In this document: piece by piece, positions 10,453 through 15,313 of the stretch
Numbering within the stretch: position 1 is the stretch's first letter
How the letters are laid out: each line of letters begins with the position of its first letter
Source of the DNA: Candidatus Aenigmatarchaeota archaeon
GTDB taxonomy: Archaea; Aenigmatarchaeota; Aenigmatarchaeia; QMZP01
Assembly (NCBI GenBank): GCA_017609225.1
Contig: JAFCEK010000003.1
Span: forward strand, 1-32,915
Direction: 5' to 3'
Length of the DNA stretch: 32,915 bases
Notes under the pieces: model-generated
The model's input: only the letters and a program-made list of their open reading frames with translations
What the model was told of the DNA's origin: nothing
Databases searched by the model: none
Position numbers and translations under genes: made by a program

Positions 10453-11049
10453 TTAAAAAAAATTGTGCCTCTGCCTGAATTCGGGCATCTTTTCCTTCAG
10501 CCTGGCGAAAAAGATTATGAATTCATGCGCCTCTTTTTTCACATAATCAAGTATCTTGTCATATTCCCTGTCATGATACCATACAGGAACCATAAGGCCT
10601 GATGACTCCTTTCCGGTGAATTTATCCAGGCCGGAATTTTTCAGCTGGAAATCATTCATGCCCACCAGTATATGCTTTATATCAATGGTTGGAAGCTGGT
10701 GGTAAATAAACCATTCGCTGTAATTAATGCCATAGCGTCTGGCTCTCCCCCTGAACATGCCCAGGTCAAAATATATGTTGTGGCCCAGGGGTATGAAATC
10801 CCATATTCTCCTGGGATTGAGCAGGCATGCAGCCTTTTTTATTATATCCTCCTCGCTTGATTTCCATTCCCTGAATATTCTGAGCGGGGTTTTGGGCATT
10901 CCATTCTCATCAAGAAGCTGGTACTGGATTGTTATGATTTTGCATATTTCCGGTGTTGGGGACGGTGCTCTGAGCCCGTTTCTCAGCTTTTCAACTATCT
11001 CCGGATTTTCATATCCAATCTCCAGGTCAAAGTACATTATGCTGCCCAT
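10453..11049 (-). CDS. PolB-type (DEDD) 3'-5' exonuclease-like protein
   Basis: The RNase H-fold exonuclease motifs are recognisable: ExoI MYFDLEIGY (Asp8, Glu10), ExoII LGHNIYFDLGMF (Asn91, Asp95) and ExoIII YVKKEAHEF (Tyr169 with Glu173 where Asp is usual). The arrangement resembles the stand-alone exonuclease domain of family B polymerases (COG3298-like). It should trim DNA or RNA 3' ends, but the ExoIII change leaves activity uncertain. A longer frame reaches an ATG at 11067, but GGAGG sits seven bases before the ATG at 11049 and decides the start. It lies 34 bases after a second, related gene, which points to a functional pair. Confidence 0.7.
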   Translation of the reverse strand: MGSIMYFDLEIGYENPEIVEKLRNGLRAPSPTPEICKIITIQYQLLDENGMPKTPLRIFREWKSSEEDIIKKAACLLNPRRIWDFIPLGHNIYFDLGMFRGRARRYGINYSEWFIYHQLPTIDIKHILVGMNDFQLKNSGLDKFTGKESSGLMVPVWYHDREYDKILDYVKKEAHEFIIFFARLKEKMPEFRQRHNFF

Positions 11050-11083
11050 AATGTTTCCTCCATGCACATGCCAGGCGAACCTG

Positions 11084-11593
11084 TCAGGTTTTCCATTTTC
11101 CCCCCTTTACATCTGCCCATATTTTCTGGAACAGTGTGTTGATGGTTTCCAGCTTTTTTTCAAAGGCGCTTTCTGATTTTTCATACTCCCCCAGGGAATG
11201 CCAGCGCATTATGTCCCTGTCTGAGGGCGGCGGCTCTATTCCGTAATGCCTGCAGTAGAAATCCAGGCTGTTCAGCTTGCCTTCATTGAGGATTGTAAGG
11301 AAAATGAACAAATCCTCCACATTCGCCATGTTTATTTTCCTGAAAAACTGCTCAAAGCCTTCAAGGTTTTTTGCCTTAAGGAGCAGCAGGGGCAGGTCAA
11401 ACTTCAGTATATTGAACCCTATAACAATCTTGTCATCCATATGCGTGAAAAATTTCATGAAATCCTTAATCATTTCACCCTCTGAAGGGAAATCCCTTAT
11501 TTTCCAGATCCTCATTGTGGCAAGCGTTCTCACTCCTATAAGGAGGGTGTTGGAATTCCATAAAAACCCGTCAGTTGCTATGCTGAAAATCAT
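11084..11593 (-). CDS. Degenerate PolB-type exonuclease-like protein, probably inactive
   Basis: The 169-residue protein has a clear ExoII motif, IVIGFNILKFDLPLLLLKA (Asn61, Asp66), as in family B polymerase proofreading domains, and LNSLDFYCRHYGIEPPPS where these proteins carry the helix after ExoII. At the ExoI position it reads FSIATDGFLW in place of F-D-I-E-T-D, so the two metal-binding acids are Ser4 and Ala6. No ExoIII Y-x3-D is seen near the end. It is therefore likely to be a non-catalytic partner, perhaps of the gene 34 bases downstream, which keeps its ExoI acids. The ATG at 11593 is preceded by GAGG and an AT-rich promoter region. Confidence 0.6.
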   Translation of the reverse strand: MIFSIATDGFLWNSNTLLIGVRTLATMRIWKIRDFPSEGEMIKDFMKFFTHMDDKIVIGFNILKFDLPLLLLKAKNLEGFEQFFRKINMANVEDLFIFLTILNEGKLNSLDFYCRHYGIEPPPSDRDIMRWHSLGEYEKSESAFEKKLETINTLFQKIWADVKGGKWKT

Positions 11594-11670
11594 AAACCTC
11601 GTATTAGTGTTGGAATGAAAATTAATAAAGGTTAAGCCGGTCCGGCTGCAGAATAAAATATTGCATAAAG

Positions 11671-12847: not shown

Positions 12848-15313
12848 ATGAAATTTTTTATTCTGGATGCGGACTATGTAATGGAAGAGGTTAAAGGAAA
12901 AAACATACCAGTGGTAAGGCTTTGGGGAAAGGATGAGGAGGGGCGTACTGTTGCCGCCCTTGATTATGGCTTTAAGCCCTATTTTTATGTGCTGCCCAGG
13001 AAAATCACAAGGGACCTGAAGGACCGCATCATGGAACTTAAAATAGACGAGGAAAAGGTCAGCAGGGTTGAAGTGGTGGAAAAAAACATACTGGGCGTGC
13101 CCAGAAAGCTGCTCAGGATTTTTGTGGAGAGCCCTGCAAGCGTTCCCAAATTCCGTGATCTCCTGAAGGACTGGAAGGATATTGAAAATGAATATGAGTA
13201 CACAATAAGCTTCTACAAGAGATACATGATTGACAGGAAGATATCGCCAATGGCATGGCTTGAGATTGAAGGAAGGGAAACAAAAAGGCCTGACATAAAG
13301 GCAGATGTTGTGCTCCGGATTGAAAAAATAAGGCAGCTTGAAAATGAGGATGCCCTGGAAACAAAAAAAATGAAGATTATGGCTTTTGATATTGAGGTTG
13401 TGGAGGTGAAAGGCGAGGAGAAAATAATAATGATTTCCATGGTTGACAGCAGGGGCTTCCAGAAAATAATAAGCTTTGGATACGGGCTCAGGGGCAAAAA
13501 CATAGAGATGCTGAAGAGCGAGCAGGAAATGCTTGAAAGGTTTGTAGAGATTATAAGAAAGGAGGACCCTGACATGATACTTGGCTACAATACCGACAGG
13601 TATGATTTTATAAAACTCAGGGACAAATGCGACAGGTACAGAATTGACCTCTCGCTTGGAAGGGACGGCTCTCATGTGGTTTTCAGGAGAAGGGGCATCT
13701 ACTCCTCTGCGGTTATAGCAGGCAGGCCGCATATAGACCTGTTTGATTTTATTGAGAATATACTGAAGGATAATCTTTCCACAGAGGTTCTGACGCTGGA
13801 CAGGGTTTCAGAGGAGCTGCTGGGAGAAGGCAAGCAGGAAATTGACTGGAAGGATATTGAAAAGGCATGGCAGAAGGGTGATTTGAAGGAGGTTGGAGAA
13901 TACTGCCTGAAGGACTCTGAATTAACGCTCAAGCTGGGCAGGCATGTTCTGCCTCAGATATTCGAGCTTTCAAGGCTGGTTGGCCAGGTTCCCAGGGATG
14001 CTTCAAGAATGACATATTCCCAGCTGGTTGAAAGCCTGCTTATAAGAAAGGCATATGAAACAGGTGAAATTGTCCAGAACAGGCCCAAGTTTGATGAGAT
14101 ACAGAGAAGGAGAAGGGCTGAGGCATACGAGGGCGGATATGTGCACACCCCAAAAGAGGGCATACATAAAAATATTGCACTGTTCGATTTTGCAAGCCTG
14201 TATCCATCAATAACCATAACACATAATGTTTCCCCGGAAACCCTGGACTGCATGTGCTGCAAGGGAAAGAAAAAGGCAAGGGTTCCGGAGGATGGCCATT
14301 ATTTCTGCAGGGAGAAAAAGGGGTTCATACCCAAAATTCTGGAAGAGCTTGTGAGAAGAAGAATGGAGATAAAGAAAAAAATGAAAAGGCTGAAGCAGAA
14401 GACAGAGCTGTACAAATCTCTTCAGAACAGGCAGTATGCCATGAAGATTATAGCCAATGCAAGCTATGGCTATTATGCATATCCCGGATCAAGATGGTAT
14501 TCAAAGATATGCGCAGAGAGCATAACAGCATGGGGAAGGTTTTACATAAAGAAGGTAATAAAGATGGCAGGGGATATGGGATATGAGGTGATATATGGAG
14601 ATACCGATTCCCTGTTTCTGAGAATGGAAAAAAGATCTGAGGTTAAAAAATTCCTGCAAAAGGTAAACAGCAGGCTTCCCGGGGTGATGGAGCTGGATTT
14701 CAGGGACTGGTACAAGGCAGGCATATTCGTTCTGGGCAAATCAGGGATTGCCGCCAAAAAGAGGTATGCACTGATTGATTCCAGAGGCAATATTGTGATA
14801 AGGGGGTTGGAGAAAGTCAGAAGGGACTGGGCAAATATAGCCAAGGATACCCAGGAAAGGGTGCTGCTGGCAATACTAAAGGACAAGTCGCCCCAGAAAG
14901 CAATAAGGATTGTAAAGAGGATTATACAGCAGCTGAAAAGCAACAAGGTAAACAAGGATGAGCTTGTTATTTACACACAGCTAACAAAGCCTGTATCACA
15001 GTACGAGCAGATGGGGCCCCATGTGCTGGTTGCAAAAAAGATTATTGAAAGAGGCGGCTCTGTCAGGGTTGGCTCCACCATATCATACATAATAACAAAG
15101 GGCTCGGGCAGCATAAGCCAGAGGGCAGAACCTGCAGAGGATGCAAAAAATTATGACCCGGATTACTATATTCATAACCAGGTTGTGCCTGCAGCCATGA
15201 GGATACTGGCAGGGCTGGGGTACAGGGAAGAGGATTTCTTCAGGAAGGGGGAAAAGGCAGAGCAGATATCTCTGGAAAAATACATAAAAGCAAAAAAAGA
15301 GCGGGAGGAGTAG
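12848..15313 (+). CDS. polB: Family B DNA polymerase with proofreading exonuclease
   Basis: The 821-residue replicative polymerase has the archaeal PolB layout. Exonuclease motifs: ExoI FDIEVV (Asp181, Glu183), ExoII GYNTDRYDF (Asn248, Asp253), ExoIII YCLKD (Tyr352, Asp356). Polymerase motifs: A DFASLYPSI (from 447), B KIIANASYG (533-541), C YGDTDS (583-588), and the thumb KKRY element later. All catalytic acids are present, so both activities are expected. The end carries QISLEKYI, matching the QxxLxxYI form of a PCNA-binding PIP box at the same place as in Pyrococcus polymerase. There is no intein. The stop is followed four bases later by a nitroreductase start, so the two were probably co-transcribed. 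Confidence 0.97.
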   Translation: MKFFILDADYVMEEVKGKNIPVVRLWGKDEEGRTVAALDYGFKPYFYVLPRKITRDLKDRIMELKIDEEKVSRVEVVEKNILGVPRKLLRIFVESPASVPKFRDLLKDWKDIENEYEYTISFYKRYMIDRKISPMAWLEIEGRETKRPDIKADVVLRIEKIRQLENEDALETKKMKIMAFDIEVVEVKGEEKIIMISMVDSRGFQKIISFGYGLRGKNIEMLKSEQEMLERFVEIIRKEDPDMILGYNTDRYDFIKLRDKCDRYRIDLSLGRDGSHVVFRRRGIYSSAVIAGRPHIDLFDFIENILKDNLSTEVLTLDRVSEELLGEGKQEIDWKDIEKAWQKGDLKEVGEYCLKDSELTLKLGRHVLPQIFELSRLVGQVPRDASRMTYSQLVESLLIRKAYETGEIVQNRPKFDEIQRRRRAEAYEGGYVHTPKEGIHKNIALFDFASLYPSITITHNVSPETLDCMCCKGKKKARVPEDGHYFCREKKGFIPKILEELVRRRMEIKKKMKRLKQKTELYKSLQNRQYAMKIIANASYGYYAYPGSRWYSKICAESITAWGRFYIKKVIKMAGDMGYEVIYGDTDSLFLRMEKRSEVKKFLQKVNSRLPGVMELDFRDWYKAGIFVLGKSGIAAKKRYALIDSRGNIVIRGLEKVRRDWANIAKDTQERVLLAILKDKSPQKAIRIVKRIIQQLKSNKVNKDELVIYTQLTKPVSQYEQMGPHVLVAKKIIERGGSVRVGSTISYIITKGSGSISQRAEPAEDAKNYDPDYYIHNQVVPAAMRILAGLGYREEDFFRKGEKAEQISLEKYIKAKKEREE

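What the first reader, a model, noticed from the sequence alone, without database searches (positions are those of the whole stretch)
10453..11593. Tandem PolB-exonuclease-like pair: one with ExoI acids, one without
The upstream protein keeps the ExoII N-x4-D but has FSIATDGF where F-D-I-E-T-D is expected, losing both ExoI acids. The downstream protein has D-L-E and a Y-x3-E variant of ExoIII. Two related proteins adjacent with unequal catalytic residues suggest an active/inactive heterodimer, or a two-piece exonuclease. They are followed by a Cas4-like nuclease in the same run, so the group could be a repair unit.
Basis: partly seen in the sequence, partly recalled or inferred. Interest (0 to 1): 0.5.

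Follow-up and report, generated by a model that had tools for sequence, protein, structure and literature searches.

The report
Dead and live exonuclease gene pair
Two neighbouring genes of an uncultured archaeon encode relatives of DNA-end-trimming enzymes, one with its catalytic residues and one that has lost them, and the pair is kept together in several related archaea, which suggests that the dead copy is a helper subunit of the live one.

Summary
Gene A (11084-11593, -) has the fold of a PolB-type exonuclease domain. ExoI D-x-E and ExoIII Y-x3-E occur in 53 of 53 family members compared, so the "variant" is the family's own signature.

A and B are homologous with motifs in register, but they are not recent duplicates: A's nearest relatives are intact stand-alone exonucleases. 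Five of 156 genomes of the phylum (Aenigmatarchaeota, two families) have intact A, and all five have B within 0-0.6 kb; a sixth copy of the pair sits at a contig end. In one genome A is broken and B is gone. A is under purifying selection.

B homologues occur without A in a Micrarchaeota complete genome and throughout Archaea, so B does not need A to be complete. The Cas4-like neighbour is not conserved.

Best reading: a two-gene unit of an active exonuclease and a pseudo-exonuclease subunit, analogous to archaeal RecJ3/RecJ4. Physical complex and substrate are inferred, not shown.

The parts
11084..11593 (-). gene A: 169-aa pseudo-exonuclease, PolB-type exonuclease fold, ExoI and ExoIII residues lost, ExoII N61/D66 kept
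10453..11049 (-). gene B: 198-aa predicted DEDD (Y-x3-E) 3'-5' exonuclease of an archaeal family without a Pfam model; the longer reading from GTG 11067 is less likely
11050..11083 (-). 34-bp A-B spacer with GGAGG ribosome-binding site at 11057-11061; in relatives the two genes overlap by 8 or 20 bp (translational coupling inferred)
   Evidence: sequence read directly
11622..11629 (-). TTTATTAA, TATA-like box 28 nt upstream of A; same octamer 33 and 21 nt upstream of A in G009 and G016 (weak evidence, AT-rich DNA)

Best explanation
A and B form a two-gene unit. B is the working 3'-5' exonuclease: D8 and E10 (ExoI), D95 (ExoII) and Y169/E173 (ExoIII) of an RNase H fold would hold two metal ions at a nucleic-acid 3' end. 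A is a pseudo-exonuclease of the same superfamily but another lineage, related to stand-alone RNase_H_2/PolB-type exonucleases. It has lost the metal site but keeps the fold and the ExoII N-x4-D strand that lies along the substrate. A most likely binds B, probably side by side as DEDD exonucleases homodimerise, and acts as a nucleic-acid-holding, positioning or regulatory subunit. The likely context is DNA end processing in replication or repair; neighbours in relatives are RFC small subunit and, for an A-less homologue, RadA. Shown: gene order, homology, residue loss, selection, co-retention. Inferred: activity of B, complex formation, substrate, pathway.
For: A lost ExoI D/E and ExoIII Y(H)/D in 5 of 5 copies while ExoII N61 and D66 stay invariant. 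The closest non-paired relatives, L072 and L073, are intact (FDIET; H-x3-D). A is not decaying: dN/dS about 0.2 for G084/G052 and for G000/G009. Co-occurrence: intact A in 5 of 156 genomes, each with B of one clade within 0-0.6 kb, in two families; a further pair is on contig L097. The genes overlap in G016, G084 and G052. In G064 the region is 96.6% identical to G084, A carries a stop and a 1.4-kb insert, and B is absent. B catalytic residues are universal in the family and B's fold matches known 3'-5' exonucleases. Precedent: inactive RecJ4 scaffolds active RecJ3 in Haloferax (PMC10470531).
Against: B of the same clade occurs without A in L103 (complete genome, no stand-alone A homologue) and L099, so the partnership is not obligatory. 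No complex could be modelled. In G009 another gene on the opposite strand lies between A and B. Only six copies of the pair are known, so co-evolution cannot be tested. ExoIII has E where D is classical, and ExoII D is often E in the family, so activity of B is not certain.
Confidence: 0.6

Rival explanations
1. A and B are co-expressed but act apart: B is a stand-alone exonuclease, and A is a separate nucleic-acid or protein-binding adaptor (for example for a polymerase, clamp loader or PCNA) that does not touch B.
For: B occurs alone in most archaea and in two members of its own clade. A evolves faster than B (in one search, A 35-52% and B 49-75% identical between distant pair members). A gene lies between them in G009.
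Against: A is never found intact without B in 156 genomes, and it is broken where B is lost. The genes overlap by 8-20 bp in three genomes.
Confidence: 0.25
2. A two-piece exonuclease: the active site is completed across the A-B interface, with A giving residues that B lacks.
For: A keeps ExoII D66; B's ExoIII has E in place of D.
Against: Y-x3-E is in 53 of 53 family members, nearly all without A, so B lacks nothing that A could supply; A has lost every catalytic residue B has except ExoII.
Confidence: 0.04
3. A is a decaying remnant of a PolB exonuclease domain or duplicate without function.
For: Lost catalytic residues; long branch; broken copy in G064.
Against: Open frames in five genomes of two families, dN/dS about 0.2, 34 invariant positions, confident fold.
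Confidence: 0.04
4. Repair or defence unit A-B-HtrA-NosD-Cas4-like, as the same-strand run in the window suggests.
For: Five same-strand genes with 22-42 bp gaps; a different PD-(D/E)XK nuclease lies 79 bp after B in G084.
Against: No homologue of the window's Cas4-like, HtrA or NosD near the pair in relatives; the gene after B is convergent in G009, L097 and L101; an oligo-T tract (archaeal terminator-like) overlaps B's stop; no PADLOC match for A or B.
Confidence: 0.07

Closest known systems
Exonuclease domain of archaeal family-B DNA polymerases (Pfam PF03104 DNA_pol_B_exo1)
   Same: A passes the Pfam cut-off and its model matches these structures best (TM-score by query about 0.6-0.7); the ExoII motif GFNxxKFD is of the same kind.
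   Different: A is stand-alone, without polymerase domain, and lacks ExoI and ExoIII acids.
Pfam PF13482 RNase_H_2 and PF10108 (stand-alone PolB-type 3'-5' exonucleases)
   Same: A's nearest intact relatives L072 and L073 belong to PF13482 (46.8 and 48.2 bits); one distant B homologue, L144, also passes PF13482.
   Different: A and B of the pair do not pass these models; A is inactivated; B has Y-x3-E in ExoIII.
Haloferax RecJ3/RecJ4 nuclease complex (PMC10470531)
   Same: Active archaeal nuclease with a homologous partner that lost its active site and serves as scaffold.
   Different: RecJ (DHH) fold, not RNase H fold; no homology to A or B.
Inactivated exonuclease domains of Pol alpha, Pol zeta and Pol epsilon C-module (PMC7544198)
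   Same: PolB-type exonuclease module kept without catalysis.
   Different: They are domains inside polymerases, not stand-alone partners of an active exonuclease.

Membership tests
DEDD (DnaQ-like) 3'-5' exonuclease superfamily, gene B | RNase H-type fold | tested here: met
   AlphaFold2 pLDDT 94.6; Foldseek best hits PolC exo 2p1j, ExoI, RNase T, Orn
DEDD (DnaQ-like) 3'-5' exonuclease superfamily, gene B | ExoI D-x-E | tested here: met
   D8, E10; 53 of 53 in family
DEDD (DnaQ-like) 3'-5' exonuclease superfamily, gene B | ExoII N-x(2-3)-F-D | tested here: met
   N91, D95 in window; D in 20 and E in 35 of 55 family members
DEDD (DnaQ-like) 3'-5' exonuclease superfamily, gene B | ExoIII Y-x3-D or H-x4-D | tested here: inconclusive
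   Y-x3-E in 53 of 53: conservative change, family-wide
DEDD (DnaQ-like) 3'-5' exonuclease superfamily, gene B | 3'-5' exonuclease activity | not testable with these tools
   needs purified protein
DEDD superfamily as an active enzyme, gene A | ExoI D-x-E | tested here: not met
   SIA, SVQ, TVQ, NIQ, NIQ in the five copies
DEDD superfamily as an active enzyme, gene A | ExoIII Y/H and D | tested here: not met
   A/L/G and K/N at these places
DEDD superfamily by fold, gene A | RNase H-type exonuclease fold | tested here: met
   pLDDT 92.3; top PDB hits archaeal PolB, then TREX1-like Plex9.1
Pfam PF03104 DNA_pol_B_exo1, gene A | score above the curated cut-off | tested here: met
   39.2 bits against 23
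DNA polymerase B, gene A | polymerase domain | tested here: not met
   169 aa, no PF00136 match
Active/pseudo-nuclease complex of the RecJ3/RecJ4 kind | physical complex of active and inactive paralogues | not testable with these tools
   no complex prediction tool; gene adjacency and co-loss only
CRISPR/Cas4 or other known defence unit | match to known defence models or conserved defence neighbours | tested here: not met
   no PADLOC match for A or B; neighbours not conserved

The most novel reading that the evidence does not exclude
A new archaeal heteromeric exonuclease in which a pseudo-exonuclease from one DEDD lineage became the regulatory or substrate-holding subunit of an active exonuclease from another DEDD lineage, a counterpart within the RNase H fold of RecJ3/RecJ4.
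Probability: 0.5. Interest if true: 0.55.

Novelty: new variant of a known kind. Interest (0 to 1): 0.42.

Why it matters
Homologous active/inactive nuclease pairs are how replication proteins such as Cdc45, the DNA polymerase B-subunits and the Pol epsilon C-module are thought to have arisen. A minimal two-gene case in reduced archaeal genomes, with the active member also found alone elsewhere, would let one measure what a dead subunit adds to an exonuclease. It also brings to light a widespread archaeal exonuclease-like family; the window's member matches no Pfam, NCBIfam or PHROG model.

Tried and rejected
Recent tandem duplication: rejected, as A and B group with different lineages, with the caution that long branches meet in that tree. 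Virus or phage origin: no relative of either gene in IMG/VR by pattern plus tblastn or in INPHARED by tblastn. Defence system: no PADLOC match for A or B. Pfam DNA_ligase_OB_2 hit of B (14 bits, below cut-off) dismissed as chance. A first scan of GTDB genomes with A alone gave nothing because its patterns were too specific. Conserved gene neighbourhood of B across 59 archaeal loci: only A recurs beside B, otherwise scattered genes or small groups of close relatives. A phylum-level search gave the same 156 genomes as the class. A heterodimer prediction was not possible with the structure tool, and co-evolution needs far more than six pairs. Literature searches for archaeal DEDD pseudoenzyme pairs found none in the held library, which does not prove there is none.

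Full report
WHAT IS THERE. A has MIFSIATDGF at the ExoI place and GFNILKFD at ExoII. B has YFDLE, GHNIYFDL and YVKKE.

HOMOLOGY AND FOLD. A passes Pfam PF03104 (PolB exonuclease domain, 39.2 bits against a cut-off of 23); B matches nothing in Pfam, NCBIfam, PHROGs or PADLOC beyond chance. The two profiles nonetheless align over their whole length with motifs in register (hhalign 98.4%, E 5e-15). AlphaFold2 gives confident single-chain models: A pLDDT 92.3, with archaeal PolB structures (exonuclease domain) as best PDB matches; B pLDDT 94.6, with PolC exonuclease, ExoI, RNase T and oligoribonuclease as best matches.

CATALYTIC RESIDUES. In all five full-length copies of A the ExoI acids are gone (S/T/N for D; A/Q for E). 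The ExoIII tyrosine/histidine and aspartate are gone too (A/L/G; K/N). Of the motif residues only ExoII N61 and D66 are invariant. Stand-alone relatives of A in two other genomes (L072, L073) keep F-D-I-E-T and H-x3-D, so the loss belongs to the paired lineage. In B's family, 55 sequences compared, ExoI D and E are in 53 of 53 and ExoIII Y and E in 53 of 53; ExoII is D in 20 and E in 35. The Y-x3-E is thus the family's own form, and B is complete by the standard of its family.

DISTRIBUTION. Of 156 genomes of the phylum, five have an intact A, and all five have B of one clade beside it: G000, G009 and G016 (family f1), G052 and G084 (family f10). The genes overlap by 20 bp (G016) or 8 bp (G084, G052), are 34 bp apart in the window, and in G009 are 587 bp apart with an opposite-strand gene between. 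A sixth pair, A truncated by the contig end, is on a contig filed under a Deltaproteobacteria bin (L097; mis-binning likely). In G064 the region is 96.6% identical to that of G084, but A has a stop codon and a 1.4-kb insertion, and B is absent from the genome at E 1e-4. B homologues occur in 59 loci across archaea (Micrarchaeota, Diapherotrites, Thermoplasmata, Asgard archaea, Thaumarchaeota and others), with no recurrent neighbour across lineages other than A. Two members of B's own clade lack A: L103 (Fermentimicrarchaeum limneticum, complete genome) and L099 (an Altiarchaeales bin). A search of their genomes for A found at most a hit inside a long ORF of polymerase size. So B is not dependent on A in general, but intact A was never seen without B.

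EVOLUTION. In a maximum-likelihood tree A is one clade (99/96) joined to the intact solo exonucleases (94/87), B is another (100/98), and the paired B together with L099 and L103 form a clade (100/99) (long branches make the deep joins unsure). The pair therefore brings together two old lineages rather than a recent duplicate. A is under purifying selection (dN/dS about 0.19-0.26 for G084/G052 and about 0.19-0.22 for G000/G009), weaker than B (about 0.1-0.15 for G084/G052).

SURROUNDINGS. The same-strand run A, B, HtrA-like protease, NosD-like protein, Cas4-like nuclease in the window is real (gaps 34, 22, 30, 42 bp). It is not conserved: none of the three downstream genes is near the pair in relatives, the gene after B is convergent in G009, L097 and L101, and an oligo-T tract overlaps B's stop codon. 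Replication or repair genes do turn up: RFC small subunit divergent from A in G084 and G052, a 397-aa PD-(D/E)XK nuclease 79 bp after B in G084, RadA overlapping B by 4 bp in L103 (RFC and RadA named from sequence by eye).

MECHANISM. Most likely B is a 3'-5' exonuclease and A its catalytically dead partner, which binds or positions the nucleic acid or regulates B. Shown: residue loss, predicted fold, co-retention, selection, coupling of genes. Inferred: activity, complex, substrate, pathway. The nearest functional precedent is Haloferax RecJ3/RecJ4, where RecJ4 lacks active-site residues and serves as scaffold (PMC10470531). Inactivated PolB exonuclease domains are known inside Pol alpha, zeta and epsilon (PMC7544198).

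VERDICT. Observation confirmed and extended. Interpretation partly supported: active/inactive pair yes, as the leading but unproven reading; two-piece enzyme and Cas4 repair unit no. New variant of a known kind, moderate interest.

Noticed in passing
L103:5989-7547: In the complete genome of Ca. Fermentimicrarchaeum limneticum, a close B homologue without A overlaps a RadA-like recombinase gene by 4 bp, the best hint to a recombination or repair role of the B family.
   Followed up: partly
L040:7577-9576 (G064): Gene A split by a stop and a 1.4-kb insertion carrying a 453-aa ORF, with B gone, in DNA 96.6% identical to the intact locus of G084.
   Followed up: yes
L048:7149-7451 (G084 C62), L045:7938-8488 (G053), L149, L155: Several stand-alone B genes are broken: an in-frame internal deletion in a second B copy of G084, and split or frame-shifted frames in G053, L149 and L155; assembly error not excluded.
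   Followed up: no
L109:4178-6194: A Thaumarchaeota contig has a B homologue divergent from a second DEDD-type protein (PF10108 match, FLDIET kept), another neighbouring pair of exonuclease-like genes.
   Followed up: no
window 12848-15313 (+): PolB of 821 aa with intact exonuclease motifs lies 1.25 kb from A on the other strand; the genome has a second PolB of about 880 aa on contig C65.
   Followed up: partly
L061 and L062 (G089, G060): A third small family of stand-alone exonuclease-like proteins (FLDIET, GFNILKFDLP, YCxxEF) intermediate between A and B types.
   Followed up: no
L097 (QMLL01000387.1): A contig filed under a Deltaproteobacteria bin carries the archaeal A-B pair, likely mis-binned.
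   Followed up: no
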